Below, in pieces: positions 3,838 through 21,824 of a stretch of DNA of 64,000 nt. This stretch comes from Bradyrhizobium barranii subsp. barranii. GTDB taxonomy: Bacteria; Pseudomonadota; Alphaproteobacteria; Rhizobiales; Xanthobacteraceae. The DNA is taken from the NCBI RefSeq assembly GCF_017565645.3, contig NZ_CP086136.1:2494001-2558000 (forward strand), written 5' to 3'. Position 1 is the first letter of the stretch. Each line of letters begins with the position of its first letter. Made by a program: the position numbers and the translations under genes. Below the pieces are notes generated by a model. That model was not told where the DNA came from, ran no database searches, and saw nothing but the letters and a program-made list of their open reading frames with translations.

Positions 3838-3838
3838 A

Positions 3839-6308: not shown

Positions 6309-6319
6309 TCGAACAGCGC
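6300..6319. other. Right attachment junction of the recombinase element
   Basis: GGGTGATC (ending 6310) belongs to the element and GAACAGCGC (from 6311) to IS66 tnpB. The TC at 6309-6310 is shared with the left junction. The TGA stop of the recombinase (6306-6308) directly abuts the crossover. Confidence 0.65.
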
Positions 6320-6604
6320 TTCGAACTGCACGCGCGTCAGATGCATGACGCCGTCGCTGATCTGCGGCCACTCGAAACGACCATCGCGGCCAAGGCGCTT
6401 GTAGACCAAAACGAGGCCCGTGCCGTCCCATAGCAAAATCTTCAGCCGGTCGGCGCGCTTCGAACGAAAAACCACGATCAGGCCCGAATGCGGATCGAGC
6501 CCAAGCGTGTTTTGCACAAGACCGGCCAGCGCGTCGTGCCCGCACCGGAAGTCAACAGGACGCACAGCAAGCACAATCCGCAGTCCCTGCGCCGGAATGA
6601 TCAT
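6311..6604 (-). pseudogene. tnpB: 5' fragment of IS66 tnpB
   Basis: About 98 residues of TnpB from MIIPAQGLRIVLAVRPVDF through FRSKRADRLKILLWDGTGL to TRVQFEALF, the conserved IS66 Orf2 core of unknown biochemical role needed for transposition. Translation then runs into the inserted element (…DHPC, stop at about 6296). The ATG overlaps the tnpA stop (ATGA), the normal IS66 spacing. The missing tail is at 3765-3827. Confidence 0.88.
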
Positions 6605-6999: not shown

Positions 7000-7097
7000 C
7001 GCCTTCAGTCTCCTCTCGGCTCTCTGACAAGCCAAGGATCGCAGAGCGAAAGCCGAAGCGAAACCAGTCAATCAAATGGGAGAAAAGCTCCGCTTAC

Positions 7098-7938
7098 ACT
7101 TTATCGTTTGTTCCTCGACGATCAGATGCAATATTCCTGCGCTTATTTTCGAGATCCCGAGCATGAGACGCTCGAACAGGCGCAGCGCAACAAGTTGGTT
7201 CACGCCACCAGCAAACTCCAATTAAAGCCTGGAATGACCGTCGCTGAGATCGGCTCCGGCTGGGGCGGCTTCGCCATCCATCTGGCGCGCGAGACCGGTG
7301 CCCATGTCACAGCAGTCAATGTTTCACCCGAGCAGATCAGGGCAGCACGTGTTTATGCCGAGGCCGCCGGCGTGGCCGATCGAGTCGTGTTTCGCGAATT
7401 GGACTATCGCCAACTCAACGGCCAATTTGACCGGGTGGTGTCTGTCGGCATGATGGAGCACGTCGGCATTGGACATTTTGACGAGTATTTCCTCAAAATC
7501 CGCGAACTCCTGACCCCTGACGGCTATGCCTTTGTCCATTGCATCGGCCGGATGTCGCAGCCTGGCACCACCGGTCCTTTCATCCGCAAATACATTTTTC
7601 CCGGCGCCTATGTGCCGGCCCTATCCGAGACCTTCGCCGCGACGGAGCGCTGCGGTCTGTGGTGCGACGACATGGAAGTGCTTCGGCTGCATTATCGCTA
7701 CACCGTGAAACACTGGCGCGAGCGCTTCGCCAAAAATAGACTACAGGCCGCTGCAATCTACGACGAACGGTTCTGCCGGATGTGGGAATTCTACCTCGCC
7801 GCTGTCGAACTCGAATTCTTGCATGGCTCCCACATGGTGTTTCAATTGCTTCTATCGACCAAACGCGATGCGGTACCGATCACGCGCGATTTTATGGCCG
7901 ACTTCGAGCGGGCGGCCTGGGCTAAAACAAGTGGTTGA
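7098..7938 (+). pseudogene. cfa: Cyclopropane-fatty-acyl-phospholipid synthase, 3' part
   Basis: The C-terminal methyltransferase portion of CFA synthase, which adds a methylene from S-adenosylmethionine to unsaturated phospholipid acyl chains. It begins right at the IS66 end: LYRLFLDDQMQYSCAYF, then the SAM motif VAEIGSGWGGFAIHLA, MMEHVGIGHFDEYF, and a long C-terminus to WAKTSG. The first 8 bp (ACTTTATC) are the IS66 target duplication. The matching 5' part lies on the other strand at 21425-21824. The open frame running back to 6991 across the IS end is accidental. Confidence 0.93.
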
Positions 7939-8058
7939 GCGCTGCCACCCCGACCTTCGGCTGCACCGAAAGACTTAGAAATCGCTACCGGGCATGTCGC
8001 CTGTTGGGCCCTTCGCGGACCTGAACCGCGGATCCGGTGATGTCCGCTCACAGTCCGC

Positions 8059-8072
8059 TTGATCCTGATCAA
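8059..8072. promoter_or_regulatory. FixK/FNR box (TTGATCCTGATCAA)
   Basis: A perfect TTGAT-N4-ATCAA palindrome. It lies 228 bp before the FixK-like gene and 65 bp before a hairpin with a T-run (8137-8174). It may control the regulator gene itself or a short transcript ending at that hairpin. Confidence 0.75.
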
Positions 8073-8105
8073 CAGGAGATCCATCCGCTGGAGCTACAGA
8101 AAATG

Positions 8106-8174
8106 TTGCGTGGCCCCCACCGCGCGACCCCACCCAAAGCCGCTGGCTTCCCAAGGGCTGGCGGCTTCCTTTTT
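8106..8174 (+). ncRNA. Candidate FixK-dependent small RNA
   Basis: This is inferred, not demonstrated. If the FixK box is centred about 40 bp before the start, transcription would begin near 8106 and stop at the T-run after 8167. The ~70-nt product would carry two C-rich stretches (GGCCCCCACC, GACCCCACCC) able to pair with ribosome binding sites, followed by a terminator stem. No ORF fits the interval. A plain leader of the regulator gene is the alternative. Confidence 0.25.
8137..8174 (+). terminator. Rho-independent terminator candidate
   Basis: The stem AAGCCGC (8137-8143) / GCGGCTT (8161-8167) has a partly paired 17-nt loop and is followed by CCTTTTT. It could end the cfa-side transcript or a small RNA started at the FixK box. 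Confidence 0.5.
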
Positions 8175-8299
8175 CCGAATTTCCACCGTGAGAGTCACCT
8201 CCGGTTGAGTACGAAGGTCCGACCAGATTTGCGCTCGATCAATCTTGGGGGGGCCTCTCTGTTTAACTCATGCAAAGTCTGAACAGGGAGGTTTCAACC

Positions 8300-8965
8300 A
8301 TGCTAATAAATGCGAACGCAGCCGCCTGTCAGCCTATCGACGGGCACCTCGCCGCTCTCGCTGGCGGACGCGTCGCCTGCAGCGAGTTCAAGTATCGCAG
8401 AGGCATCGAGATTTTTGGTGAAGGTGAGGACGCAGAATACGTCTACCAAATTACTTCGGGGGCGGTACGGACGTATAAGATGCTCCCAGATGGTCGCCGC
8501 CAGATTAATGCGTTTCACCTACAGGGTGACATGTTCGGATTTGAGAATGGAATCACGCACCGGTTTAGCGCTGACGCTCTCGTCGAAACTCACGTTCGCA
8601 TCATAAAGCGAGGCAGCATCCTCAATGCGATGCAAAGTCGAGTGGTCAGCACAAAGACCCTCATTTGCTACGTTACGCAAAATCTCCAGCACGCTGAAGA
8701 TCACATGCTTCTCTTGGGGCGAAAGACTGCCCTCGAGAGAGTTGCCGCATTTCTTCTTGAAATGGATGAACGGCTAAACCATCCCCCGATGATCGTCCTA
8801 CCAATGAACCGCCGCGACATCGCCGACTATCTTGGAATTACGTTGGAAACTGTCTCCAGAGCTTTCTCCGTGCTTCGAGACGAAGCATTACTACGTTTTG
8901 ACGGAAACACTCAGCGTCGGCTCGAATTGCTAGACCGTCAGGTCCTCGCGAAGTTCGACGCGTGA
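8300..8965 (+). CDS. Crp/Fnr-family regulator, FixK-like
   Basis: 221 residues starting at MLINANAAACQ; GGGAGG lies 9 bp upstream, so this ATG is preferred to the one at 8270. The order is a cyclic-nucleotide-type beta barrel (about 20-130), a dimer helix (about 130-150) and a winged HTH with NRRDIADYLGITLETVSRAF (about 170-195). The ETVSR recognition helix matches FNR/FixK proteins that read TTGAT-N4-ATCAA. The N-terminal cysteine cluster of oxygen-sensing Fnr is absent, so like FixK it is probably controlled by expression level. FixK boxes occur near several genes in this window. Whether it is a FixK2 orthologue cannot be told. Confidence 0.9.
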   Translation: MLINANAAACQPIDGHLAALAGGRVACSEFKYRRGIEIFGEGEDAEYVYQITSGAVRTYKMLPDGRRQINAFHLQGDMFGFENGITHRFSADALVETHVRIIKRGSILNAMQSRVVSTKTLICYVTQNLQHAEDHMLLLGRKTALERVAAFLLEMDERLNHPPMIVLPMNRRDIADYLGITLETVSRAFSVLRDEALLRFDGNTQRRLELLDRQVLAKFDA

Positions 8966-8971
8966 GCGCCC

Positions 8972-9160
8972 ATGCCCAAAAACTCCCCCCCCCCGATCTG
9001 CCCGAAATGCGGCAAGCCGATGCACTTCGTGATCGTTAAGACAGGCGGTCGCAAGTTTCGCTGCATCAAGTGTGACGACATTGACCCAATACAGGTCCCG
9101 GACTTTCAAGCATGGGCCAATAGCGAATTGCGCCCCCCGAAAGACGACATCAAGGCCTGA
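8972..9160 (+). CDS. Small zinc-ribbon protein
   Basis: A 62-residue protein beginning six bases after the stop of the FixK-like gene, so probably co-transcribed. CPKCGKPM (residues 10-17) and CIKCD (about 31-35) supply the four cysteines of a zinc ribbon. Proteins of this size and shape are common uncharacterised companions in rhizobia. No catalytic motif is visible and the function is unknown. Confidence 0.7.
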   Translation: MPKNSPPPICPKCGKPMHFVIVKTGGRKFRCIKCDDIDPIQVPDFQAWANSELRPPKDDIKA

Positions 9161-9330
9161 GTTGGGGCCTCTTAGATATCGCCTGTTGGCCCGCGTGAGC
9201 CATGCCGGGTGGTCTGACGATGTCAGTGCGCAGGGGGTAGACCGTAGGAGAACGGCACGCGGACAAAGTGACGCGATTGACCCAACTCAGACTCTTTAAG
9301 GTGGCAAAGGCCAGAAAATTCATAACCACA

Positions 9331-9358
9331 AAAAAGCCCCGGCGAGCCGGGGCTTTGG
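9331..9358 (-). terminator. Rho-independent terminator of the Omp25-like gene
   Basis: AAGCCCCGGC (9334-9343) and GCCGGGGCTT (9346-9355) form a perfect GC-rich stem, followed on the minus strand by a T-run (TTTTTTGTGG). It lies 20 bp beyond the stop of the minus-strand porin gene. Confidence 0.88.
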
Positions 9359-9377
9359 TTTGCGAAGATGCGTGCGA

Positions 9378-10142
9378 TCAGTATCTGGCCGCGACCGGTG
9401 CGCCGTATCCACCGAAGCGGTAGTTCAACCGAAGCGTGACCATGTCCACATCTTGGCTGACTCCGCTGCCGGTGAGGATGAACCCTCTAGGAGTAACCAC
9501 GCCTGCGAAGCCGGCATTATCACGCCCCATCCAGAGATGGTCGTATTCGATACCGAACGACCAGTTGGGCGTGAAGCCGTACTCCCAGCCAACGCCGAGG
9601 GCGCCGCCCCAGCGTGTGTGGCCTGCCGATGCCAGGCCGACCCCGGTGATGTTGTTGAATATATCGAATCGATTGCGCGTCACGGCGGCGCCGCCCTTCA
9701 CGTAGAACAGCGAGGCGTTCCACGCCCAACCGAGTTGCGCCGTGAGGAGCCCGATGGCGTCAATCTTGCCCGTGGTCGAAATCGATGGATCGATCAGACT
9801 GACGCGCGTGTTCTTGATTTCGGCCCAATCTCCCTGCGCTTCCAGGCCGAGCACAAATTGATTCGTTTGCCAGCGGTACCCGATCTGTCCGCCCGCGAGG
9901 CCTCCGGAGCGATCGGCGCAACCACCTGCGACTGTCCCTGCGGGCGTCACGAAATCCACACAACCGTGGCTTTGTCCCCAACCTCCGTTGGCACCGATGT
10001 AGAATCCCGTCCAGTCATAGATCGGCGCGACCACCGGGGGCGGCGCCTTGGTGTAGGGACGGGCCGCCAGATCAGCCGCCGACGCGGGGGCGGATAGAGC
10101 TACGGCCATCATCCCGGCTGCGGCTATCAGAAGCTTTTTCAT
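9378..10142 (-). CDS. Outer-membrane beta-barrel protein, Omp25/RopB type
   Basis: 254 residues from MKKLLIAAAGMMAVALSAPA, with GGGGAG upstream on the minus strand supporting this start. It has a signal peptide with an Ala-Ala cleavage region (residues 1-23), a proline-rich linker (TKAPPPVVAPIYDWTGFYIG) and an eight-stranded barrel ending in the aromatic-terminated strand (LNYRFGG…VAARY). YDWTGFYIGANGGWG is the hallmark of the rhizobial Omp25/Omp31 group. Such proteins are abundant surface porin-like proteins. It is transcribed alone and closed by a strong terminator. Confidence 0.88.
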   Translation of the reverse strand: MKKLLIAAAGMMAVALSAPASAADLAARPYTKAPPPVVAPIYDWTGFYIGANGGWGQSHGCVDFVTPAGTVAGGCADRSGGLAGGQIGYRWQTNQFVLGLEAQGDWAEIKNTRVSLIDPSISTTGKIDAIGLLTAQLGWAWNASLFYVKGGAAVTRNRFDIFNNITGVGLASAGHTRWGGALGVGWEYGFTPNWSFGIEYDHLWMGRDNAGFAGVVTPRGFILTGSGVSQDVDMVTLRLNYRFGGYGAPVAARY

Positions 10143-10611
10143 TACGAGCAATCTCCCCAGAAAGAAGTTCAAAAAAGGCACGACGCCCACCTAAGGAATC
10201 GATGCTATCCCGTTCGTCCGCAGGTTGATGTAGCCAAGCCGCAACACTCGGCTCAGATCTTTAGCGGGAATATCTTTATTAAGGACTTACAGGGAACCAA
10301 ATGCACGCCAACGTGCTTATTACGGCAGAAGAAAATCCGCCGACCCTGGAGAAAGTCCGCGGGAGTTAGGACTGTAGATCCTGATTGGGGCCCCCGGTCG
10401 CCGTTCAACTGTGGCATGGGACCCCCGGCGCGAACCGGCGTCACAAACCTGTGGCATGACCATTGCAAAATGCAGGACAACTGGGATTTCAGCGCTCGGT
10501 TAGAGAATAAGCGCTGCCGGGACGCTTATTTCGAGCCCGGTGACGCTTCCCTTTCTTCGCTTGCACCATCACTACGACGCATCTTGTTTCGACGAGTGGG
10601 GTACTCGGCGC
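10143..10611. other. Intergenic region upstream of the Omp25-like gene
   Basis: This 470-bp stretch must hold the minus-strand porin promoter and the plus-strand promoter for the small gene at 10612. No FixK box, clear promoter or convincing ORF is seen. Short ORFs in it lack ribosome binding sites and protein-like composition. Confidence 0.4.
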
Positions 10612-10791
10612 ATGACGTACGACACGGCAACGGTACATATGCTCCGCGACGTTCTAGACGACGTTCTTTCCAGTCCGTCATTCACTCGTCAGCAGCAGCG
10701 ATCTGCGGCGGAAGTTGCCGAGCGCGTTCTCTTACTCGCTTCCCAAGGCGAGCGTGAACCGATCAGTGATCAAACGACACCTGCTAAATGA
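10612..10791 (+). CDS. Small conserved rhizobial protein
   Basis: 59 residues starting at MTYDTATVHMLRDVLDDVLS. The sequence is acidic and helical, with a conserved-looking RQQQRSAAEVAERVLLLASQ segment, and resembles short unannotated proteins of about 60 residues found widely in Bradyrhizobium. A longer frame from 10540 exists, but its extra N-terminus is rich in His and Arg and unconvincing. No known domain; function unknown. Confidence 0.55.
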   Translation: MTYDTATVHMLRDVLDDVLSSPSFTRQQQRSAAEVAERVLLLASQGEREPISDQTTPAK

Positions 10792-11051
10792 GTTTTTGGC
10801 ATCCGCTGCCAGCGAAGCCAACCGGGGCCGCCCCCTTCGCCTGATCGACGGTGAGCACGCTAGGTGACCAAGGGCCGCTGGTAACGCCCTGCCGGTTCGA
10901 TCGTGTCTGCCATGCCACCACCGCCGCTCATCGGAGCATTCCCTGCCCCTGGCAGGTCGGCTTTTGATGCTGTGGACGGCTCCTCCACGGGCACGAGAGT
11001 GCCAAGGAGTGGGCGCCGTTTTGAGGCTCCCACGATTCGGAGGAGCGACCT

Positions 11052-12084
11052 ATGTAGTCAATTTCGACAATCGGTCTGGATATCGCGAAGTCGGTCTTTC
11101 AAGTGCATGGCATTGATGCAGCCGGCCAAGTGGTCGTGCGCCGTCAATTGAGGCGCCACCATGTCCTGGCGTTTTTCCAAAAGCTGCCGCCATGCCTGGT
11201 CGGGATCGAGGCTTGCGCGTCATCGCACCACTGGTCCCGCGAGCTGCAGGCGTTGGGGCATACGGTGCAACTGATGCCTCCGGTCTATGTGAAGCCCTAC
11301 GTCAAGCGGCAGAAGAACGACGCCACCGACGCGGAGGCGATTTGCGAGGCGGTCACGAGACCCAACATGCGGTTCGTGCCGACCAAGACGGTTGAGCAAC
11401 AGAGCTGTCTGATGCTTCACCGCGCGCGCCATCTCTTCGTCCGCCAGCAGACTGCCGTGATCAATTCAATCCGCGCCTATCTTGCCGAGTTCGGGATTGT
11501 CGCCCCTGTTGGACGCAGGGGTGTCGAGCAACTGCTGGAAGTCGTCGCCGATCCAGCCGACTGTCGGCTCCCCGAGGTGGCCCGTGCGTGTCTCGTTGCT
11601 CTCGGCAGTCAATTGCGAGCCCTGAAGGCCCAGATTCTGGAGTTCGACCGACGCATCATCGCCTGGCATCGATCAGATGCAACGAGCCAACGGCTGGACG
11701 CGGTCCCCGGCGTCGGGCCAGCGCTGGCCACTGCGCTAGTCGCGAGTGTTGCCGATGCCAAGTCCTTCCGATCGGGGCGGGATTTCTCGGCCTGGATTGG
11801 GCTCGTACCGAAGCAGAACTCGAGCGGGGGGCAAGGACAAGCTCGGCAGCATCAGTAAGCAAGGCGATCGCTACTTGCGCAGTCTGTTCACGGCTGGCGC
11901 CCTCGCCGTGATCCGCTACGCCAAGATCCATGGCACCCGGTATCGGCCCTGGCTCACCTCGTTATTGGCGAGGCGCCCCACAAAGGTCGCTGCGATCGCG
12001 CTCGCCAACAAACTTCCCAGGATGGCATGGGCGATGATGGCCAGGAACGAACGCTACAAGGAACCCGCCGCGCTCACGGCGTAA
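11052..12084 (+). pseudogene. IS110-family transposase, doubly disabled
   Basis: The sequence has the DEDD-type N-terminus (STIGLDIAKSVFQVHGIDA; GIEACASSHHW; KNDATDAEAI) and the Transposase_20 C-terminus (LDAVPGVGPALATALVA … KQGDRYLRSLFTAGALAVIR). Codon 2 is TAG (11055-11057) and a six-G run (11826-11831) shifts the frame, where five G would restore NSSGGKDKLGSI. A start at an internal GTG or ATG cannot recover the missing first catalytic Asp. IS110 elements lack terminal repeats, so the ends cannot be set; an IS256 lies in its 3' flank. Confidence 0.88.
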
Positions 12085-12212
12085 CGAGATCACACTGGCC
12101 ACGCCGGTGTGACGTAACGGTTGGAAGGGCGAACAGCACGTAATGCAGCGCCGGTCGACCCGGCGATCAGGACAACCCACATCGGGCCATAGCATCTTCG
12201 AATGCGTGCTTT

Positions 12213-13611
12213 GAGCTATGGCTGATTTTGGGTGACGCGGCCTGATCAGGCGGCGTGGCTTTCAGTGTTCGGAATGACTTCGATTCCGTCGATGAACTTT
12301 ACACCGGCGATGACTTTCGGCAACTGGTTCGTGCTCTTCAATCGCCGCCAGGTCTTCGATGCGGCGTCGATGAGCTTGAACACCATCAGCTTCGCAGTTT
12401 GTTGCGACAGCGATCCCTTGGTCCGCACCGTTCGGTGGCGCACCGTGGCGAAGACGCTCTCGATCGGGTTCGAGCTGCGTAGGTGGATCCAGTGCTCAGC
12501 AGGGAAGTCGAAGAAGGCGAGCAGCGCATGGCGATCCTTGATCAGGCACTCCACCGCACGTCCGTATTTGACGTGGTATTTCTCGACGAAGACGTCGATC
12601 GCGGTTTCAGCTTCGGCCCGGTGTGGGGCCAGATAGATGTTCCGCAGGTCGTTCTTCATGGGGCCCTGCACGGATTTGGCGACCTTGTCGAGTACGTTGC
12701 TCACTTTATGGCACCAGCATCGTTGGTGCCGCGTGCCGGGAAAGGCCTCGTCCAGTGCCTTCCAGAAGCCGAGGGCGCCGTCGCCGATGGCGAGTTGCGG
12801 GGCAATCCGTAACCCGCGTTGCCGCAGGTCGATCAGGAGTTCGCGCCAGCTCTGCGCGCTCTCGCGCACGCCGACCTGGAAGCCGATCAGCTCCTTCTTG
12901 CCTTCCGGCGTGGTGCCAATCAGCACCAGCATGCATTCGCTGTGATCTTCCATGCGGGCCTGCAGGTACACGCCATCGGCCCAGATGTAGACATAGCGAC
13001 GCGCCGACAGATCGCGTCTCTGCCAGCGTTCGTACTCGACCTGCCAATCGGCCTTCAGGCCGGCGATCACCGAAGGCGACAGGTTCGGCGCATCCTTGCC
13101 GAGCAGCGCCGAGAGCGCCTCCTGGAAGTCGCCGGTCGAGATGCCGCGCAAATAGAGGACCGGGATCAAGGCATCCAGGCTCTTCGTCCGCCGCGCCCAT
13201 AGCGGCAGGATTGCCGAACTGAAGCGGAGGCGGTCGCCTGGCCCGCTCGCTCCGCGGTCGCGGACCTTGGGACGAGCGACCTCCACCGGACCGATGCCGG
13301 TCGCAATCTCGCGCACCGGACCGTGCCCATGTCGGACCAGGCGCGCTCGACCGTCGGGCAGCGTCAGATTGGCCGTGCTGGCCAGAAACGCGCCAACCTC
13401 GATCTCGATCGCCCTGGCAAGCAGGTCCCGCGCGCCGGCACGAACGATATCGGTCAGTGGATCATCAACCGCGGACGGCTGACGGAAAGCAAGAACATTG
13501 GTAGTCTCGGTCATGGCGTATCGCTCTCCTCGAGAGGTTCTGGCAGGCTCGTCACCCGCCTCGATACGCCGCCTTCCTCACACCGTCATCACCCAGATTC
13601 CGCCATAGCTC
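12213..13611 (-). mobile_element. IS256-family insertion sequence, complete
   Basis: The inverted repeats begin GAGCTATGGC at 12213 and, read inward on the other strand, at 13611 (GAGCTATGGCGGAATCTGGG). The 9-bp direct repeat GCGTGCTTT flanks both sides (12204-12212 and 13612-13620). The element is 1399 bp with one intact transposase, a textbook recent insertion, probably into the 3' flank of the IS110. Confidence 0.93.
12246..13514 (-). CDS. IS256 (Mutator-type) transposase
   Basis: The 422-residue protein has the usual family length. The DDE-type core shows YVYIWADGVYLQARMEDHSE (first Asp), LAIGDGALGFWKAL (second Asp) with the following CWCHK, and the glutamate in SSNPIESVFATVRHRT. The N-terminus has the DNA-binding region with TGIGPVEVARPKVRDR. 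The frame is intact from MTETTNVLAF and fills almost the whole element, so it is probably active. Confidence 0.95.
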   Translation of the reverse strand: MTETTNVLAFRQPSAVDDPLTDIVRAGARDLLARAIEIEVGAFLASTANLTLPDGRARLVRHGHGPVREIATGIGPVEVARPKVRDRGASGPGDRLRFSSAILPLWARRTKSLDALIPVLYLRGISTGDFQEALSALLGKDAPNLSPSVIAGLKADWQVEYERWQRRDLSARRYVYIWADGVYLQARMEDHSECMLVLIGTTPEGKKELIGFQVGVRESAQSWRELLIDLRQRGLRIAPQLAIGDGALGFWKALDEAFPGTRHQRCWCHKVSNVLDKVAKSVQGPMKNDLRNIYLAPHRAEAETAIDVFVEKYHVKYGRAVECLIKDRHALLAFFDFPAEHWIHLRSSNPIESVFATVRHRTVRTKGSLSQQTAKLMVFKLIDAASKTWRRLKSTNQLPKVIAGVKFIDGIEVIPNTESHAA

Positions 13612-13894
13612 GCGTGCTTTTGATCGGGACCTGATCCGCGGAGGGCATTATGGCCAGCGGTCACGTGTACCGCGCAAATAGGCCGAACACATGGCTGCTC
13701 CGACCAATGCTGCGACGTGAAGATTCTTTTTGCCAACCTGGAGCCGTCCACACATGGCCCATCAGCGAAGTAACGGCCGAAACCGAGTACGTCCGATTGT
13801 CGGAGTCCGGAAATGAACAGGCGAAAGTCAAAGCGACGCGATTGACCCATTTGAGACATCGACCGATCGCAGCGGACGTCCGGTTGGCACAAGG

Positions 13895-14944
13895 CTATTT
13901 CACAACCGGATGCTTCGTGGGCGCTATGGCGGCAGGCGCGGACGGGGAAATGGTGAACGTCAGCCAGGTATTCCATCCTGACGGACGGTTGGCTGCACCG
14001 AACTCGCCGTATCCCCTCAGGCTAAGGGAGCCCTGCATGCCTGCGACCGGGAAGCTGTACCCGATTTGCGGACCGACACCGAAAACGCGTGACCTGAAGC
14101 CACCGAGGATCGGGTTCTGGCCTGAGTCGTCGGTGATTTGCTGGTAGGCATATCCGACAATGCCGACGAAAAGCTGCTTGGTGAGGTAGTGAGATGCGCC
14201 CCAGTCGAAGTGGAAATCGATGCCGCTCCGGTACAGGGTGTCGGGATTCCTGAAATTGTAGGTAAGGCCGGCGACGCCCGAGATTTCGTTTCCTGCCGCC
14301 GGGTCGAAATAGGTATAGGCGCCTCCAATGTCGATCGCACCGTGCCCGAGCCCGATATTGGGAATCCGCGTCGGATCATAGTCGCCGACGGGAACATTGC
14401 CCGTGACGTAAGCCATGTAATTGTCGACGCCGTGGCTCCATAGCAGTTGCGCGAATGGCGCGAGGTCGCCGTAGGAGGTAAGCGAGCCTTCGAGCATTCC
14501 GGTGCGCGTCACCACAATCGGTCCGGCTATCGCTGTCAGTGTCCCGGCGATACTGGTGGCGGCTCTGCCGTACTGGCCGGACATGCCCACGACCAACTGA
14601 CCGCCAAGCACTGCCGTCGCGAAAGTATACGATGGCGCAAGGGCGACCAGATCGGCCCGCCCGCTCAGACTCAGATTCAGATTAACGTTGACATTCGCGG
14701 GGATTTTGCCGGCCAGGATCTCTTTGGCCGCAGCAGCGCCCCCCGCGGCGGCGACGCCGGAATGGTAATCGATGACACTGAGCGCCCAGCCCGGTGTCTG
14801 CTGCATGGCCACGAGGCTCGCAAACTGACCCGGAAACCAGAATGAGCTACCGCCCTGGTCGGCATGCGAAACATCAGCGCAAAGCACGAGAGCAGCAACC
14901 GCCGCATAATTGATGACGCGGCTTTCCGGTTTGTTTGATCTCAT
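13895..14944 (-). CDS. Outer-membrane transporter of the phenol MetA/SphA type
   Basis: 349 residues with an N-terminal signal peptide (VINYAAVAALVLCADVSHAD) and a long beta-barrel that ends TWLTFTISPSA…, with alternating aromatic strands (YTFATAVLGGQLVVGMSGQY; DIGGAYTYFDP; GLTYNFRNPDTLYRSG; GPQIGYSFPVAG). This layout fits the Phenol_MetA_deg / SphA family, outer-membrane proteins often linked to uptake of aromatics. No pathway genes are adjacent, so the substrate is unknown. It stands alone, facing away from the FixK-box genes that follow. Confidence 0.8.
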   Translation of the reverse strand: MRSNKPESRVINYAAVAALVLCADVSHADQGGSSFWFPGQFASLVAMQQTPGWALSVIDYHSGVAAAGGAAAAKEILAGKIPANVNVNLNLSLSGRADLVALAPSYTFATAVLGGQLVVGMSGQYGRAATSIAGTLTAIAGPIVVTRTGMLEGSLTSYGDLAPFAQLLWSHGVDNYMAYVTGNVPVGDYDPTRIPNIGLGHGAIDIGGAYTYFDPAAGNEISGVAGLTYNFRNPDTLYRSGIDFHFDWGASHYLTKQLFVGIVGYAYQQITDDSGQNPILGGFRSRVFGVGPQIGYSFPVAGMQGSLSLRGYGEFGAANRPSGWNTWLTFTISPSAPAAIAPTKHPVVK

Positions 14945-15342
14945 TGCAAACCTCTGGGCGGCATTTGCAACCAGTGGCGGCTACTAGAAAGCGCCGCGAA
15001 CCGCGCGGCCTCAAGTTACGACGGCATTCAATACTAGGGCACAAGCAGCGTCGAAACCCGTGACAGAATGGTAACAGCGGGGGATATTTGTATTACGGCG
15101 ATGACGCAGTCTCGGCTCATCCAAGAGTTGCTTGGCGCTGGAGATGTTCGGTTTCTTTGCCCAAGCGAGGTTCGTTCCTGGGCCCATCTCGACAAATATG
15201 GGAGGTCTTGCTGAGGTCTCCTATCGAAGGCAGAGCCGACTTGATTTGCCCGCAAGTATTACGGCTCGTGACCCAACCGCGACATTGGCCTGGCCTCACG
15301 ACTTTGGGCGTAGTCGCTTCTCGCGGGCGCTCTGGCGCGGAC

Positions 15343-15356
15343 TTGATTTGGATCAG
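15343..15356. promoter_or_regulatory. FixK/FNR box (TTGATTTGGATCAG)
   Basis: TTGAT-N4-ATCAG, 9 of 10 consensus positions. Its centre is 73 bp before the ATG at 15423, which allows a start of transcription about 40 bp downstream of the centre and a short leader. Confidence 0.7.
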
Positions 15357-15422
15357 TAATCAAGCCTGTACGGGTGCCATAAATCCAAGCGTGGAATGCC
15401 CTCCTTGAGACGAGGTAGCATC

Positions 15423-15773
15423 ATGATTATCAAGACACTCGCGTTGCATTCACTTACCTGCCTGGTGGGCATTACTAGTTCATTGGCAGTGCCCCAACTC
15501 ATTTCTCCGTCGGGTACGGCGGCAGGCTTTCAGTCGGATACTCGTACTGAAGTCGCAATAGTTACTCGTCAGTTCGTGAACCGCACGGTCAAGAGTGACA
15601 GGTTGCCAGCCAACCAAGCAGGGTCTGAGGCTAATGGCAAAAGGCATCCTGTACAGGTGCCGGCAAACACCGCTCCAAATCGGGAATGGAAAACCGATTG
15701 CAAGCCGCCCATTGATGTAATTGGCCGCTGCTTTGCCGACCTTGGAGAAACCCACGGCACCTTTCGGACCTGA
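15423..15773 (+). CDS. Small secreted protein behind a FixK box
   Basis: 116 residues from MIIKTLALHSLTCLVGITSS, chosen over 15396 because a GAGGTAG ribosome binding site precedes it. The first ~24 residues form a signal peptide (SLAVP). The mature part is polar and ends with a cysteine-containing motif (DCKPPIDVIGRCFADLG) resembling the tails of other short exported rhizobial proteins. No known domain; possibly periplasmic. The FixK box suggests expression when oxygen is scarce. Confidence 0.65.
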   Translation: MIIKTLALHSLTCLVGITSSLAVPQLISPSGTAAGFQSDTRTEVAIVTRQFVNRTVKSDRLPANQAGSEANGKRHPVQVPANTAPNREWKTDCKPPIDVIGRCFADLGETHGTFRT

Positions 15774-15893
15774 CCCTGATGTAGTGCGCCCAATGCGCCG
15801 ACGCCCACCTGTGTTATGCGATATAGGACCGGGGTCCAGTTGATAACGACAGATCAGCATGGACGCCTGGCCAGGTCATAGGGGATCATCGGT

Positions 15894-16360
15894 TCAACCG
15901 TTGGCGTGGCGATATTGACACCGGCATTCGTCTTGATCGCGACCTCGGGACACGACTTGCTCCCGATAGTGATGCAGGGCGGCGATTATTCGCTTCTAGT
16001 GACGAAGGGTATGAGCCGTTTTACGTCGGGCGGCTGTTCGGGCTGATCGCCGCCAGTTTTCTAGTGCTCGCGCTGATCGTCGAGACTATTAAATTGTACT
16101 CGAGCGCACTGAGCGAGACCGCCAGCGCCGAGCAGAAAGTGGCGCAGCTGAAGCGCGCCCGTGCCCTTGGCGAAATTCCGCTTTCGAAGAAGGGAAGCGG
16201 CGTTCCCGTGGAATCTTATGTCCAGAAACAAAACATCGCTTATTATGAAACCTTGCTCAAATTCATGTCGCTTGGCGAAGACCAGCGCTGCACGGTGGAA
16301 AAACTCTTAAGTCAGGAAAAAGAGAAGCTTGGTTCGGTTAACACCGGCATAGCCGGATAG
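15894..16360 (+). pseudogene. Remnant of a membrane sensor (MASE4-like segments) fused to a coiled tail
   Basis: Frame one reads TVGVAILTPAFVLIATSGHD LLPI and stops soon after. From about 16013 a second frame reads EPFYVGRLFGLIAASFLVLA then LIVETIKLYSSALSETASAE. The two pieces match the start and end of the N-terminal membrane sensor of rhizobial two-component kinases, with the middle helices deleted and the frame changed at about 16010. The tail (residues after 16130, YYETLLKFMSLGEDQRCTVE) looks like a separate short helical protein. No kinase domain remains. Confidence 0.55.
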
Positions 16361-16466
16361 AGAAGGGTGGGACAAGCTGGGCTGGAGCTTGATGGACAAT
16401 GAACGGACCACCGCTTTTGACCCAGATCGACCAGGGCTTGCTGTCGTTGCAGCAAACACTTGTTCG

Positions 16467-16910
16467 CTCCGAGCATGTCAGTGTGACCGGTTGCGATCCA
16501 GATCCTCGCCCCTGCCGCGATCGGGATCATCGCCGCTCCAGCAGATCCAGTACGCGAGACAACGCGGTCATATCAACGCCGGCGTCCACGATTACGCGAC
16601 AGGCCTGGCCGATGACAATCTCCATGCGTCCGCTCGCTGGGCCGGCTGAAGCTACTGCCGGCTCCGGCAGCTGGTCTGGCATCACCATCGCCGGCACAAA
16701 GGCTGGCTGGCGTTGTTCGCTCGTCCGCGTCCCAAACGATCGTCGCCAAGTCAACATACCGTATCGTCGTGCTGTCGGCGAGACAGCACGCGGTGCCTGC
16801 AAACTCTCCAGAACGATCTTGAGTTTCTCATCATCGGTCCAGCGGCGGCGACGACCAGTCTCGACAACCTCGAACCGTTCGATCTGAGCACTGAACCTAT
16901 TGCTGTCCAT
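16467..16910 (-). pseudogene. IS66-family remnant: tnpA plus start of tnpB
   Basis: The 127-residue frame 16527-16910 begins MDSNRFSAQIERFEVVETGR and contains the WTDDEKLKIVLESLQAPRAV HTH of IS66 TnpA, but the helix after RRYG is shortened (…RRYGMLTWRRSFG), as if codons were lost. A tnpB start overlaps it (ATG at 16530; MIPIAAGARIWIATGHTDM) and is cut after about 21 residues. It belongs to a different IS66 lineage from the two other copies. The same tnpA type is seen as a scrap at 43204. Confidence 0.8.
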
Positions 16911-17239
16911 AAGCGCTGTTACACAGCACTCGCCCTAACCCGACAAGGCGGCCCTCACCGGAGGGAGACGCCTCACACGAAATTCACAGGCGACTTCGGT
17001 AACGCGATTGAGGTCATACGAGTCAGCGGTCGCTCACTGCGTAGTGTTTTCGCGAAAAGTCTTGAGCCCTCCAACTTTCAACTTTGGCAACACAATCGGC
17101 CCGTTTCGGACATGTCCCGTCGCGCTGACGATGCCCGTTGGTAAGACAAAGGCAGACCTTGGGAGTCCAAGCGCAGGGCGTGAGGAACCGCTGTTAACGG
17201 CTTGCCTGTGTCCAGCATTGGCGGGCGGATGCCTATAGG

Positions 17240-17253
17240 TTGATTTAGATCAA
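17240..17253. promoter_or_regulatory. FixK/FNR box (TTGATTTAGATCAA)
   Basis: A perfect TTGAT-N4-ATCAA palindrome centred 66 bp before the ATG at 17313. The rest of the preceding 400 bp (16911-17239) shows no gene. Confidence 0.8.
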
Positions 17254-17312
17254 CATCCACTCTCCGGAATTTGGGCGACCTGCAAGAGGGCGGGAGACAC
17301 GGAGTTTGAGAT

Positions 17313-17642
17313 ATGGGTGAACGATCGGAATCGATGGTCAGCCGTCGAGGCGCTCTTGCTGTTTGTGGATACGCAGCCGTCTTCGGGTTCCTGGCCTCGC
17401 CTGCAATTCTGATGGTGTCAGATGCTGACGCCCAGACCTCAACCGCACCGGCCACGCCCGCAGCGCCTTCCACTGAGACACCGCAGTCGGGCACGGAGCG
17501 ACGTCAGGAACGACGCACAGGGCGCACAGAACGGCGTCAGGATCGACGGACGGGGCGAACAGAACAGCGTCAGGAGCGACGGACGGGGCGCACAGAGCGG
17601 CGCGAAGAGCGGCATGACGGTGCTGCCGAAGAGAAAAAGTAG
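17313..17642 (+). CDS. Exported Arg/Glu repeat protein
   Basis: 109 residues with an N-terminal export signal containing a twin arginine (MVSRRGALAVCGYAAVFGFL; the ATG at 17334 is an alternative start) and a cleavage region near DADAQ. After a Pro/Thr/Ala linker the rest consists of ERRQ-ERRTGRT units encoded by a 33-bp tandem repeat, giving a highly charged, probably helical or disordered tail. No family recognised. The FixK box just upstream points to low-oxygen expression, and the gene at 17687 follows by 44 bp and may be in the same transcript. Confidence 0.65.
   Translation: MGERSESMVSRRGALAVCGYAAVFGFLASPAILMVSDADAQTSTAPATPAAPSTETPQSGTERRQERRTGRTERRQDRRTGRTEQRQERRTGRTERREERHDGAAEEKK
17502..17600 (+). 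repeat. Three tandem 33-bp repeats within the Arg/Glu repeat gene
   Basis: The units start at 17502, 17535 and 17568, each opening CGTCAGGA and closing with a GGGCG(C/A)ACAGA core, and a fourth degenerate part-unit follows. Being a multiple of three, copy-number change would keep the reading frame. Confidence 0.85.
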
Positions 17643-17686
17643 CCGCGCGTCCACCAAGCACGCCCCAACCAATTAAGAGCAAGTAC

Positions 17687-17984
17687 ATGAAAAGTACAAC
17701 GGTGCTCGGGGCGGCCCTCGGGGCAGCGATGTTGTGCTTGGCGCCCGTGTCGTTTCATTGGTCACCAGCCGGGACTATCGTTATCTCCCTCGACAAAGCT
17801 GACGCTCGTGTCGGTCGTCCGCTCACACCTGGCAGCGTTGCGGGGGTTCATAGGCGAGTGCATCGGCGCGCGTATCGTGGCGCGGGTGCTATGGAGCTGC
17901 TGTAGGCGCAGCTGCCGTCGGAGCAGGGCCACGGGAGCGTACCACCGGCAATGCGGTTATTATCCAAATCGTCCGAGCTATTGA
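17687..17984 (+). pseudogene. Small secreted RVGRPLTP-family protein, frameshifted
   Basis: The first frame (MKSTTVLGAALGAAMLCLAP signal, then ARVGRPLTPGSVAGVHRRVH) stops at 17905. The sequence continues in a second frame (GCYGAAVGAAAVGAG, about 17888-17930) and ends in a third (TGAYHRQCGYYPNRPSY, TGA 17982-17984). The combined reading parallels the intact relative at 25508, which also has ARVGRPLTPxSVAGV followed by a Gly/Ala/Tyr-rich tail. Two indels, near 17885 and 17932, are needed. It is probably a dying gene in the FixK-box operon starting at 17313. Confidence 0.7.
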
Positions 17985-18004
17985 GCGCGACGTCGCATCC
18001 AGCG

Positions 18005-18018
18005 TTGATCTACGTCAA
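18005..18018. promoter_or_regulatory. FixK/FNR box (TTGATCTACGTCAA)
   Basis: TTGAT-N4-GTCAA, one mismatch to the palindrome. Its centre is 87 bp before the ATG at 18098. It starts 20 bp after the end of the preceding pseudogene. Confidence 0.65.
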
Positions 18019-18097
18019 CATCACCCACTCTACTTTCCACCCACAAGTGCTTGCCGCGATGCATCTCTATCGGTTCGCGGCGAAAGGGAGGATCACC

Positions 18098-18361
18098 ATG
18101 CATCGGACAAAGAGTTTGTCGATCGAGTCAGCGACAGTTGCCGGGATTGCCGCCAGCGTCCTGCTGGGGTTGGGGGGTCTCACGCTCAATCCAACGCCAG
18201 CCAAGGCGGTCGTGTATTGCCAGTACGTTGAATATCCGGTGGGGTGCGTTGCAAGGGCTGGCGTCGTGCTCAGGCCTCGTCCGGTGGCGCGCGCTGCCGT
18301 CCGTCATAACGCAGGGGGCAATGCAAACGGCGGCGTCAATCGCGTTGGGGTGCGGCGGTAG
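18098..18361 (+). CDS. Small secreted protein with YCQYVEYPVGC motif
   Basis: 87 residues from MHRTKSLSIESATVAGIAAS; a GGGAGG site 7 bp before fixes the start, although the frame opens at 17951. The signal peptide ends near TPAKA (residues 1-37). The short mature part has a two-cysteine motif VVYCQYVEYPVGCVAR and a Val/Pro/Arg-rich end (VVLRPRPVARAAVRH … VNRVGVRR). Similar exported proteins of unknown role occur in Bradyrhizobium. The FixK box at 18005 suggests the same low-oxygen control as its neighbours. Confidence 0.7.
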   Translation: MHRTKSLSIESATVAGIAASVLLGLGGLTLNPTPAKAVVYCQYVEYPVGCVARAGVVLRPRPVARAAVRHNAGGNANGGVNRVGVRR

Positions 18362-18557
18362 GGCAGTGTGTCTGTGCCGCATTGTTGAAAAGATGCAGCC
18401 GCCTCAATTGCGGCACGGGACTCAGCCATTGATTCGCTCGGTAATCCAGCGTTCGTCGGCTTGTCCACGATCCCTTAGAACTCACACCTGGATCGGCCAA
18501 CGATGGGGGTGCAAGGGCGCTTGGTCCCCATCCGGGCGCCCTTGTGCTGCGAGAGGC

Positions 18558-18752
18558 CTAGGCTCCGCGCCAGACGCGCAACACGCCCTCGCGAAAGCCG
18601 CCGACGAAATGATCGGACGTATCCGATGGCAGAATTTGGCTGAGATCATCGAACGAGCCGCTCACCATGGTCGCAAGCTCATGTGCTGAAGCATGCTCCG
18701 CCCATCGGCGCCCCAGCTCTAAACCCCGTTGGCGATCTTCCTCTGCGTCCAT
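18558..18752 (-). CDS. Short hypothetical protein
   Basis: 64 residues (MDAEEDRQRGLELGRRWAEH … SDHFVGGFREGVLRVWRGA). The acidic start, balanced composition and helical pattern look like a real protein, and the C-terminal GFxxGxLxVW pattern recurs in short rhizobial proteins. No ribosome binding site stands out and no domain is recognised. It is next to a membrane protein on the same strand, with a GC-rich hairpin (around 18778-18812) between them. Confidence 0.45.
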   Translation of the reverse strand: MDAEEDRQRGLELGRRWAEHASAHELATMVSGSFDDLSQILPSDTSDHFVGGFREGVLRVWRGA

Positions 18753-18946
18753 CGTCTCGGCTATCTTGCGCGTTAGCCGGCCCCGACGAAGTTGCTGACC
18801 GCGCCGGGGCCTTCTACGTTCTCGCCAAGCTTAGGAAGCTTGGGGGCTGGAAAGATCGGCGAGGCGTATCGTAGGGAAGCACAAACCCGGTGCGTGGCTA
18901 GTGCACTTTGTGCCAATGCGAAGCGGATGACCGGCATCCGTCGTTT

Positions 18947-19402
18947 CTATTGGCTGCCTCCAAGGGCACGCCCCAGTCGTTCCAGTTTGACGCAGAATAG
19001 CGCGAACAGCGACGCCATGAGTTGCAGCCCGCGACGGAACATGAGCCAGAGATCGGCGCCGTGATTGATCTCGGGCAAATGTCTGAAGAACACGACGCCG
19101 AACAGTGAGCCACCGAAAATGAAAGCAAGGCGCCCCAGAAACAGAAACAGGTGGCTCAGGATTGGGTTCGAGCGCTGAGGGGGAAGCGGAACGCATCGAA
19201 GGCGATACCAATAGGCGACTTGCATCGCAACGATCATGATTGGCGCTGCAAGATTGTCAGACCGTTCGAAAGGTAGCTGCTCACCGGGATAGGTCATCAA
19301 GTGCCTAAATTCGGGCAGACCGTCCAAGATTATAAATAGCGCTCCCGTCAGTTGACCCAGGAGAAGAAGCAAATAGAGGGCTCTCGATTTCAAGTTCGTC
19401 AT
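18947..19402 (-). CDS. Four-helix integral membrane protein of unknown function
   Basis: 151 residues from MTNLKSRALYLLLLLGQLTG; a longer start at 19444 is possible but adds a polar stretch that would not suit an inner-membrane N-terminus. Hydrophobic helices lie at about 6-26, 55-75, 90-115 and 125-145, with YWYRLRCVPLPPQ between the second and third. No known family is recognised. The gene lies at the edge of the inverted block, about 150 bp from the IS66 end at 19550. Confidence 0.6.
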   Translation of the reverse strand: MTNLKSRALYLLLLLGQLTGALFIILDGLPEFRHLMTYPGEQLPFERSDNLAAPIMIVAMQVAYWYRLRCVPLPPQRSNPILSHLFLFLGRLAFIFGGSLFGVVFFRHLPEINHGADLWLMFRRGLQLMASLFALFCVKLERLGRALGGSQ

Positions 19403-19549
19403 GCCAAACACCCGTGAAAGCTTGCTGTCAGCGCGGCTGTGCACGAAGGCGTCCTGTATTGGGTCTGGTGACGGCCCGCCGCGTTAAATTGGCACAAACT
19501 GCATAGCGCAAAGTCACATAGCTGCATCGCGGCTTCCCCTGATTGTATC

Positions 19550-21424
19550 GTAAGCGGAGCTTTTCTCCCATTTGATCTGAACTGGAAGCGAGTGGGCGAA
19601 CGGATTGTCGCGACGCCAGCTGCGGCGAACTGACTCAGACCCGACAACCTGTTTCGCGCGGGGCTTTGGGATGATAGCTTGCGGATGTGCCGCCGTCCCC
19701 CATTGATCCCGCCCGTCTTGCAGCGCTGCCCGCCGATGTGCGCGCGCTCTTCCGCGCGCAGGAAGCGATGATTGAAGCCGAGCGTCGTCGCGCAGACGAT
19801 GAATGCTCGGCGCGCCTTCATGTCGAGAGTGAACTGGCTGCGTCCAAAGAGAGCGTCGAACGCCTCGAACTGCTCGTGAAGGAGTACGAGCGCGCACGTT
19901 TCGGTAAACGCTCGGAGAAGTTCAATCCCGATCAGATGCAACTGGTTCTCGAGGACATCGAGATTGCCATCGCCGAAGTCCAGGAACGCCAGGACGATCG
20001 TGCGCGCCGCGCCGGCACGGCGCCGTCCAGCCGCCGGACCAGGCGCGCTGCCCGTGCCTTTCCCGCGCACCTGCCGCGCATCGAGCAGGTGATCGAACCC
20101 GAGAACCTCGAGTGTCCCTGCGGCTGCGGCCGGATGGTCCAGATCGGCGAGGATCGCTCCCGCCGTCTCGATGTCATGGCCGCCCAGTATCGTGTGATCG
20201 AGACGGTGCGACCGCGCTACGCCTGCGCAAAGGGCTGCACCGGTGTTGCTCAGGCGCCGGCGCCCGCCCATCTCGTGGAGGGTGGCATCCCCACCGAGGC
20301 GCTGCTGGCGCAGGTGGCGGTCGCCAAGTTCAGCGAGCACATGCCACTCTATCGTCAGTCGCAGGTTCTGGCTCGGCATGGCATCTTCATCGATCGCGCC
20401 GTTCTGGCAGACTGGATGGGAACGGTCGCCTTCCACCTCGCGCCGCTGGTCGAGCGCATGAGCGTCGTGATGAAGCAATCGGGCCGCTTGTTCATAGACG
20501 AGACCAGGGCGCCTGTGCTCGATCCGGGCCGGGGCCGAACGAAGACCGGCTATCTGTGGGCTGTCCTGCGCGACGATCGCGGCCACGGCGGCGCTGATCC
20601 ACCAATCGTGGTCTACCACTACGCGCCAGGACGCGGTGGTGACCATGCTGAGCGCATCCTCGAGGGCTTCGACGGCATCCTTCAGGTCGACGGATACCAG
20701 GGCTATCATCGGCTCGCACGGCCCAAGCGCAAAGGCGGCGTGCCGCTGCGGCTGGCCGCATGTTGGTCCCACTCAAGGCGCAAGATCATCGCAGCGACTC
20801 CGAAAGCCGGCTCACCCATCGCCGAAGCCGTTCTCGCGCGCATCGCCGCACTCTATGCGATCGAGAAGGAGATCCGTGGCGCCGACGCCCCGGCTCGGCA
20901 AACGACCCGTAACGAGCGATCACGGCCGCTCGTCGCTGAACTCGAGAGGTTTCTGCGCGAGCAAGCCGCTCGCCTGTCGCCGGGCAGCGAGATGGGCAAG
21001 GCGATCGCCTATCTCCTGAACCATTGGGATGGCCTCACCTTGTTTCTCGACGATGGTTGCGTTGAGATGGACACCAATCCCGTCGAAAATCAAATCAGGC
21101 CGCTGACTCTGACGCGTAAAAATAGTTTATTTGCTGGTCACGACGAAGGTGGTCGTTCATGGGCGCGCATAGCTTCGCTCATCGCCACCTGCAAAATCAA
21201 CAGCGTGGAGCCCTACGTCTGGATGAAAGCGACGCTCAAGGCGATCGCAACCGGTCACCCGCAGTCCCGGATCGACGAGCTCCTGCCCTGGTCGTTCGGC
21301 CGCACCTCGTAATTCTCCGTCGTTGCCGCCTCCATACCCCCCGCCAACGATTTGCAAACACGTTGATCAACAGACTGCAATCCCCACGCCAAACCTTTGC
21401 GAGTGGGACGCGAACGTCGCTTAC
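19550..21424 (+). mobile_element. IS66 deletion derivative (tnpC only)
   Basis: The ends are GTAAGCGGAGC at 19550 and …GTCGCTTAC at 21424. The 27-bp left end is followed directly by the last codons of tnpB (LNWKRVGERIVATPAAAN), so tnpA and nearly all of tnpB are missing compared with the copy at 1974-7097. The right flank GATAAAGT (21425-21432) is the complement of ACTTTATC beside the other copy. The left flank (…ATTGTATC) has no partner, which fits end-swapping between copies. Confidence 0.92.
19687..21312 (+). CDS. tnpC: IS66-family transposase TnpC (second copy)
   Basis: The 541 residues are identical, apart from one visible Val/Leu difference near residue 18, to the copy at 2086-3711, and the same zinc-binding and DDE motifs are present. 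The start is GTG (19687). Without tnpA and tnpB on this element it would depend on proteins supplied by another IS66. Its near identity to the first copy makes the pair an efficient substrate for homologous recombination. Confidence 0.95.
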   Translation: MPPSPIDPARLAALPADVRALFRAQEAMIEAERRRADDECSARLHVESELAASKESVERLELLVKEYERARFGKRSEKFNPDQMQLVLEDIEIAIAEVQERQDDRARRAGTAPSSRRTRRAARAFPAHLPRIEQVIEPENLECPCGCGRMVQIGEDRSRRLDVMAAQYRVIETVRPRYACAKGCTGVAQAPAPAHLVEGGIPTEALLAQVAVAKFSEHMPLYRQSQVLARHGIFIDRAVLADWMGTVAFHLAPLVERMSVVMKQSGRLFIDETRAPVLDPGRGRTKTGYLWAVLRDDRGHGGADPPIVVYHYAPGRGGDHAERILEGFDGILQVDGYQGYHRLARPKRKGGVPLRLAACWSHSRRKIIAATPKAGSPIAEAVLARIAALYAIEKEIRGADAPARQTTRNERSRPLVAELERFLREQAARLSPGSEMGKAIAYLLNHWDGLTLFLDDGCVEMDTNPVENQIRPLTLTRKNSLFAGHDEGGRSWARIASLIATCKINSVEPYVWMKATLKAIATGHPQSRIDELLPWSFGRTS

Positions 21425-21824
21425 GATAAAGTTCGGTCGAGATGTCGTAGTGGTGGCGGGCGTGGGCGGCGGCAAGCCCGATCGGATTGGCTTGATGTCA
21501 GCGGCGCAGACCACGCCACACCCGTCGCATCAGCTTCTGTGAGCTGTACGAATAAAGCCCGGCCCGGTTGACCGAGAACAGCAGCAGAAAATCTTGGATT
21601 TCGTTACTGTCCTCCAACGTCAGTTTGCCGTCCATATAGGCTTCGGCGGCGTATAATTCCGGATTGATGAACAGTTTGTAGTAGAGCTTGCGATCGTGGA
21701 GACGGATGGCGACCTCGGGGCCGGGCTGGCATTCGCCGAAGACATGGACCGTGCCCTCAGCGTCACGGACTCGCAGAGTGCCTTGTCGTATGAAGCGTCG
21801 GAGCAGATCGGACAACAAACGCAC
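21425..21824 (-). pseudogene. cfa: Cyclopropane-fatty-acyl-phospholipid synthase, 5' part
   Basis: The N-terminal part of the same CFA synthase whose 3' part is at 7098-7938: MRLLSDLLRRFIRQGTLRVR, then LYYKLFINPELYAAEAYMDG and DFLLLFSVNRAGLYS, ending HHYDISTELY at the IS66 end. An in-frame TGA (21498-21500) after RGLRR is a second lesion; TGG at that codon would give an unbroken frame. The terminal 8 bp ACTTTATC (minus strand) repeat those at 7098-7105. Joined through a single ACTTTATC the two parts read …ELYRLFLDD… without gap. Confidence 0.93.

What the first reader, a model, noticed from the sequence alone, without database searches (positions are those of the whole stretch)
7098..21824. 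cfa is split over 14 kb and reveals an inversion between two IS66 copies
The 3' part of a CFA synthase (7098-7938, plus strand) and its 5' part (21425-21824, minus strand) each end exactly at an IS66 terminus, and both carry the 8-bp sequence ACTTTATC there, the length of an IS66 target duplication. Flipping 7098-19549 through the two nearly identical, oppositely oriented tnpC genes restores cfa with one complete IS66 and a matching duplication. So the block carrying the FixK-like regulator, an Omp25-like porin and the first FixK-box genes was inverted after IS66 entered cfa. The inversion could still switch back and forth.
Basis: partly seen in the sequence, partly recalled or inferred. Interest (0 to 1): 0.8.

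Follow-up and report, generated by a model that had tools for sequence, protein, structure and literature searches.

The report
Two neighbouring inversions between IS66 copies
A stretch of a nitrogen-fixing soil bacterium's chromosome was flipped by recombination between two copies of a jumping gene, splitting an already broken lipid-modifying gene over 14 kilobases, and the next-door stretch was flipped in the same way; this is an ordinary kind of event, but here it can be read unusually clearly.

Summary
In detail: the two cfa pieces end at IS66 termini and share the 8-bp duplication ACTTTATC, and related genomes carry an uninterrupted cfa in which the flanks overlap by 8 bp. A third IS66 copy, 15.8 kb upstream of the window's left copy, pairs with both. 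The ancestral order was therefore X1-P(rev)-Q(rev)-Y, and two adjacent blocks (P, 15.8 kb; Q, 12.45 kb) were each flipped in place. Insertion-free versions of all three joins exist in other genomes. Over 19 of the 21 near-complete tnpC copies, the window's two copies are reciprocal recombinants: swapping them within 2054-2158 / 21240-21344 turns two unique haplotypes into two that exist elsewhere, the only such case among 29 combinations. That favours homologous recombination over replicative transposition. The flip did not break cfa: IS66 did, and the 5' part also has an in-frame stop, so flipping back cannot restore it. Ongoing switching is untested, and reads were not available to exclude misassembly. 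New member of a known kind; modest interest.

The parts
1..1973 (.). Window part of block P (the rest is C1:2480159-2494000), the second inverted block; ends in an IS-type transposase gene cut by IS66 at CGTCGAAC (1966-1973)
   Evidence: The 8-bp flank pairs with GTTCGACG at the outer left end of IS66 copy A, 21 kb away; uninterrupted joins in other genomes; the joined halves read through in frame
1974..7097 (-). IS66 copy L, 5,124 bp: IRR at left, tnpC (2086-3711), serine-recombinase element in tnpB (about 3832-6311), tnpB, tnpA, IRL at right
2054..2158 (-). Interval in copy L within which the crossover that inverted block Q most likely lies
   Evidence: Informative SNPs and haplotype swap test; coordinates from the L/R mismatch list
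7098..7938 (+). 3' part of cfa (CMAS domain), starting with the duplication ACTTTATC (7098-7105)
7098..19549 (.).
   Evidence: TSD pairing, relatives, Pfam
19542..19549 (+). ATTGTATC, the duplication that pairs with the right flank of IS66 copy A (C1:2480159), not with copy L
   Evidence: insertion-free site with 8-bp overlap in G011 and G162
19550..21424 (+). IS66 copy R, 1,875 bp: 27-bp IRL joined directly to the tnpC region; tnpA, tnpB and the recombinase element are deleted
   Evidence: exact junction found in 0 of the 264 other genomes searched
21240..21344 (+). Interval in copy R within which the Q crossover most likely lies
   Evidence: coordinates from the L/R mismatch list
21425..21824 (-). 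5' part of cfa (GTG start at 21824), duplication copy GATAAAGT at 21425-21432, in-frame TGA at 21498-21500

Best explanation
Three IS66 insertions stood in alternating orientation on this Bradyrhizobium chromosome: one in an IS-type transposase gene (between X1 and block P), one between blocks P and Q, and one in cfa (between Q and Y). RecA-type homologous recombination between opposed neighbours flipped block P (15.8 kb) and block Q (12.45 kb), each in place, leaving the three pairs of 8-bp duplications split between different copies. Shown: the three duplications pair crosswise, the joined flanks exist without insertion in other genomes, and the two window copies carry a reciprocal SNP exchange near the end of tnpC. 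Inferred: that the crossover was RecA-dependent, that P flipped before Q, and that the flips happened in the lineage rather than in the assembly. cfa was already inactivated by the IS66 insertion, and has an additional in-frame stop; a CMAS gene elsewhere (C1:5379150-5379962, open frame of 429 aa) is uninterrupted.
For: TSDs: of 21 two-ended IS66 copies in the genome, 16 have an identical 8-bp repeat at both ends and one shares 7 bp; copies A, L and R pair crosswise on three 8-mers (two found by the script, the third read by eye behind 16 extra bp at copy A); one other copy (C3:57587) has unmatched flanks. Insertion-free joins: cfa in 11 of 11 loci compared; Q-end/P-start contiguous with an 8-bp overlap in G011 and G162, the only two of the 15 other genomes with a match (264 others searched) whose match reaches the block's end; X1/P joined in 18 of 19 fetched loci, with an 8-bp overlap aligned directly in L208 and extrapolated by two bases in L206 and L210. 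Crossover footprint: over 6 informative tnpC sites in 19 copies (of 21 near-complete ones; C3:57587 and C3:153767 left out) R is GAAGCG and L is TAAATA, both unique; swapping after the fourth site gives GAAGTA (the copy at 5414351) and TAAACG (copies at 8847132 and 4259236); of 29 combinations of unique-haplotype pair and breakpoint this is the only one that yields two existing haplotypes. A, L and R are not each other's nearest relatives. Precedents for IS-IS homologous recombination with exchanged flanks: PMC6778807 (IS66, passages), PMC8692435 (Bradyrhizobium, passages).
Against: No reads and no sister strain with the un-flipped order were available; the one same-species genome found (G107) has no listed match to the cfa end of block Q (query 1-868) at E 1e-20, with 40 of 173 candidates scored. 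A misassembly through near-identical inverted repeats would give the same junctions. Five pairs of SNP sites show all four combinations; four of them need A, L or R, but 163/1829 does so without them, so gene conversion among IS66 copies (or repeated mutation) happens here and weakens the SNP argument. The P crossover is only loosely placed. The model does not explain the extra 16 bp in front of copy A. The X1/P comparisons are other copies of a common IS, not orthologous loci.
Confidence: 0.88

Rival explanations
1. Intramolecular replicative transposition of one IS66: each event copies the element into a nearby target on the same molecule and inverts the DNA between, which gives the same split duplications with no pre-existing second copy.
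For: The duplication pattern is formally identical (the inversion outcome is described for IS6-family elements in PMC7986276, passages).
Against: It predicts that A, L and R are near-identical siblings; instead they carry different SNPs, each shared with distant copies, and R has lost 3.2 kb. The L/R haplotypes are reciprocal recombinants of two haplotypes found elsewhere. I made no search devoted to IS66's transposition mechanism.
Confidence: 0.08
2. Assembly artefact: blocks P and Q were placed in the wrong orientation because the flanking IS66 copies are near-identical inverted repeats.
For: The pattern would be the same, and reads were not available. [quoted passage not shown]
Against: The genome is in 4 contigs with a 10.69-Mb chromosome, and 17 of 21 two-ended IS66 copies, 11 of these 17 being 5.1 kb long, have self-consistent flanks. 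Copy R is only 1,875 bp and carries a junction found once in 265 genomes, so a read of a few kb would place it (inference).
Confidence: 0.06
3. The serine recombinase carried inside IS66 inverted the block by site-specific recombination.
For: Copies A and L carry a large serine recombinase gene (Resolvase, Recombinase and Zn-ribbon domains in copy A's product).
Against: The inferred L/R crossover lies in the 3' end of tnpC, more than 1.5 kb from the recombinase element's boundary, and copy R has lost that element. In copy L the recombinase frame is split by a 2-bp insertion.
Confidence: 0.02

Closest known systems
IS66-IS66 homologous recombination on the Agrobacterium tumefaciens 15955 At megaplasmid (PMC6778807; passages seen)
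   Same: Same IS family, 8-bp duplications, recombination between two near-identical copies inferred from the exchanged flanking 8-mers.
   Different: There the copies are in direct orientation and the result is a large deletion; here they are opposed and the result is inversion, twice in a row.
IS-mediated deletion and duplication in Bradyrhizobium symbiosis islands (PMC8692435; passages seen)
   Same: Same genus; homologous recombination between existing IS copies keeps copy-specific sequence variation and target duplicates.
   Different: Other IS elements (ISRj1, ISRj2, ISBj2, ISBj12, ISFK1 fragments), direct orientation, deletions and duplications that were caught experimentally. The passages name inversion only as a general possibility.
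Intramolecular replicative transposition of IS6-family elements (PMC7986276; passages seen)
   Same: Can yield an inversion of the DNA between the element and its target.
   Different: Replicative: each event would add an identical new copy (from general knowledge); the copies here are distinguishable and recombinant.

Membership tests
IS66 family | TnpC transposase with IS66 DDE domain | tested here: met
   PF03050 E 7.7e-102 plus PF13817, PF13007, PF13005 for 19687-21309
IS66 family | tnpA and tnpB upstream of tnpC | tested here: met
   Present in copies A and L (tnpB loses its last residues to the recombinase element), absent from derivative R; tnpB is so named in public records of near-identical elements
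IS66 family | 8-bp target duplication | tested here: met
   16 of 21 two-ended copies with identical 8-mers, one with 7 bp, one unmatched, three paired crosswise
Inversion by homologous recombination between opposed IS copies | Near-identical inverted repeats at both ends of the inverted block | tested here: met
   1,848 bp shared by L and R with 4 mismatches, opposite orientation
Inversion by homologous recombination between opposed IS copies | Duplications swapped between the two copies | tested here: met
   Three cross-pairs among copies A, L and R
Inversion by homologous recombination between opposed IS copies | Reciprocal exchange of copy-specific SNPs | tested here: met
   For block Q: L x R is the only pair among 29 combinations that yields two existing haplotypes. 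For block P the exchange could not be placed.
Inversion by homologous recombination between opposed IS copies | RecA dependence | not testable with these tools
   Needs a recA mutant
Phase-variable invertible segment | Both orientations present in a population | not testable with these tools
   No reads; one assembled orientation only
CFA synthase (CMAS) | CMAS domain in an uninterrupted reading frame | tested here: not met
   The 3' part carries CMAS, but the gene is cut by IS66 and its 5' part has an in-frame stop

The most novel reading that the evidence does not exclude
The alternating row of IS66 copies (A forward, L reverse, R forward) acts as a live shuffling device: blocks P and Q flip independently and repeatedly, so cultures are mixtures of up to four orders that place a Crp/Fnr-type regulator and an outer-membrane protein next to different neighbours.
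Probability: 0.1. Interest if true: 0.5.

Novelty: new member of a known kind. Interest (0 to 1): 0.3.

Why it matters
It is a worked case of how to read past rearrangements from target duplications: two adjacent flips, with insertion-free versions of all three joins found in other genomes and one crossover placed within about 105 bp. It also warns that gene order in such regions reflects IS history, so operon or regulon inferences across these IS66 copies (for example a FixK-type regulator beside a broken cfa) are unsafe.

Tried and rejected
A single inversion between two simple insertions was rejected because the outer flanks do not match. Inversion by the serine recombinase was rejected on crossover position. 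Replicative transposition was disfavoured by the SNP pattern. A first SNP table was unusable for tnpC because loci were not oriented; it was redone. Looking for a sister strain with the un-flipped order: the one same-species genome found, G107, has only scattered matches to Q, P and Y and no listed match to the cfa end of Q (40 candidates scored per genome). A plasmid search with the cfa end of block Q found nothing. Paper searches touching IS-mediated inversion or IS66 in Bradyrhizobium or elsewhere listed related work but nothing on this locus; (a guess at the strain) and searches added nothing used here. I did not establish the strain's name.
Full report
Setting. The window is C1:2494001-2558000 of an 11.4-Mb, four-contig genome. 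Of the seven best cfa hits among named genomes, six are Bradyrhizobium and one is a metagenome bin labelled Hyphomicrobiales.

Observation. Copy L (1974-7097, IRR left, IRL right) and copy R (19550-21424, IRL left, IRR right) are IS66 elements in opposite orientation. cfa's 3' part starts at 7098 with ACTTTATC; its 5' part on the minus strand ends at 21425 with the same 8 bp. I compared 11 loci, the closest of those fetched (L089-L095, L170-L173; three pairs appear to be the same contig, so 8 distinct genomes). In 11 of 11 the two flanks are contiguous and share 8 bp, aligned to the last base in two and extrapolated by one to three bases in nine. The 5' part reads into an in-frame TGA at 21498-21500, so cfa carries a second lesion; the three relatives translated (L089, L091, L094) are open there. 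An uninterrupted CMAS gene (open frame 429 aa) lies at C1:5379150-5379962.

What one inversion does not explain. If two ordinary insertions had recombined, the outer flanks should match: CGTCGAAC left of L should be the complement of the 8 bp left of R, which is ATTGTATC. It is not. I therefore listed IS66 ends in the genome: one search gave 48 matches, 47 with at most one mismatch, plus one with two that I did not examine. One search read the flanks of all 47. There are 21 two-ended copies: 16 have identical 8-mers, one (5406943) shares 7 bp, one (C3:57587) has unmatched flanks, and three (A at 2475037-2480158, L and R) do not match themselves but match each other: A-right/R-left ATTGTATC, L-right/R-right ACTTTATC, and A-left/L-left GTTCGACG. 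The last was read by eye, behind an extra 16 bp of IRL in front of copy A. Five further ends are single.

Reconstruction. Naming the blocks X1-A-P-L-Q-R-Y, the pairs give the ancestral order X1-IS-P(rev)-IS-Q(rev)-IS-Y. Flipping P between the first two copies and Q between the last two gives the present order. Both other ancestral joins exist elsewhere. Q-end and P-start: 265 genomes were searched; 15 besides our own had a match (E 1e-20); in the two whose match reaches the block's end, G011 and G162, P follows with an 8-bp overlap, and in G183 the two matches lie about 315 bp apart. X1-end and P-end form one IS-type transposase gene: of 32 genomes with a match (our own included) I examined 19 fetched loci; 18 hold both on the expected sides, one (L213) lacks X1; the 8-bp overlap is aligned directly in L208 and extrapolated by two bases in L206 and L210, while the other alignments stop short of the site. 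The joined frame is open across the site. These X1/P comparisons are other copies of a common IS, not orthologous loci.

Mechanism. The split duplications alone fit both homologous recombination and replicative intramolecular transposition. SNPs separate them. I compared 19 of the 21 near-complete tnpC copies (C3:57587, C3:153767 and shorter fragments left out); they have six informative sites. R (GAAGCG) and L (TAAATA) are both unique; a swap between the fourth and fifth site yields GAAGTA, the haplotype of the copy at 5414351, and TAAACG, that of 8847132 and 4259236. Among 29 combinations of unique-haplotype pairs and breakpoints, this was the only one to give two existing haplotypes. From the L/R mismatch list the crossover lies at 2054-2158 in L and 21240-21344 in R; the script's own conversion of the second site is one base off because of a gap column. 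For P, undoing the Q swap leaves A (TACACG) and a middle copy (GAAGTA). An exchange before site 163 makes the first insertion match the 5414351 copy, including its rare SNP at element position 122 (seen in that copy only in the stitched piece); an exchange after it gives the haplotype of 5435155 to the second. I cannot choose between these. P-then-Q needs fewer unseen haplotypes than Q-then-P (reasoned by hand). Against: five site pairs show all four combinations, and one of them, 163/1829, does so without A, L or R, so conversion or repeated mutation among copies occurs, and SNP numbers are small.

The element. Of the 21 two-ended copies, 13 are 5,121-5,124 bp long: an IS66 with a serine-recombinase element of about 2.48 kb in tnpB. 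Copy L is 99.8% identical to a copy on a B. japonicum USDA 123 plasmid, and a 2,641-bp form without the insert exists on plasmid p1S06B. Copy R keeps 27 bp of IRL joined to element position 3275; that exact junction was found in our genome only, 1 of 265.

Known or new. IS66-IS66 recombination with exchanged 8-bp flanks was reported as a deletion in Agrobacterium (PMC6778807, passages), and IS-IS recombination with preserved sequence variation and duplicates in Bradyrhizobium symbiosis islands (PMC8692435, passages). This is an inversion case of the same kind, doubled. I did not find this locus described in the searches.

Consequences. The flip did not inactivate cfa and cannot restore it. Whether the block still flips is open: 1,848 bp of inverted homology at the ends of a 12.45-kb block makes it plausible (inference), but no population data were available. 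Misassembly is not excluded but is unlikely, given the contiguity and the 1.9-kb length of copy R.

Noticed in passing
window 19550-19590; C1:5406943-5409512; C1:4259236-4261850 and C3:82148-84762 (same junction); C3:57587-60031; C2:4008-5192: Shortened IS66 derivatives that lost the serine-recombinase element have widely different left break points (element positions 27, 535, 720, 767, or unidentified other sequence in C2:4008), but all resume within about 10 bp of each other (3272-3282), just past the tnpC-side edge of the recombinase element. One end of that element looks like a fixed end for deletions; the cause is unknown.
   Followed up: partly
C1:2475021-2475036 (locus L085): Sixteen bp of the IS66 left end stand in front of copy A's own left end, as if a second IS66 had inserted into the end of the first and most of one copy was then lost, or as a small tandem duplication.
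   Followed up: partly
window 3832-6311: The recombinase element sits inside tnpB and replaces its last residues, yet 13 of 21 two-ended copies are of this 5.1-kb form, 11 of them with identical 8-bp flanks; in copy L its recombinase is split by a 2-bp insertion.
   Followed up: partly
window 22232-24195: Other mobile DNA (DDE_Tnp_1_4, PF13701) separates the DNA upstream of cfa from the next gene compared with relatives such as L089, where the two parts are contiguous; it has about 40 listed matches at 93-95% in the same-species genome G107.
   Followed up: partly
C3:57587-60031: IS66 copy with non-matching 8-bp flanks (GGAAAATG before IRL, AAACAATT after IRR) and an inverted 70-bp piece inside; probably another rearranged copy.
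   Followed up: no
locus L085 12934-13554 (block P): A reading frame resembling the C-terminal half of a FixK/Crp-type regulator, apparently truncated, in the neighbouring inverted block (resemblance judged by eye).
   Followed up: no
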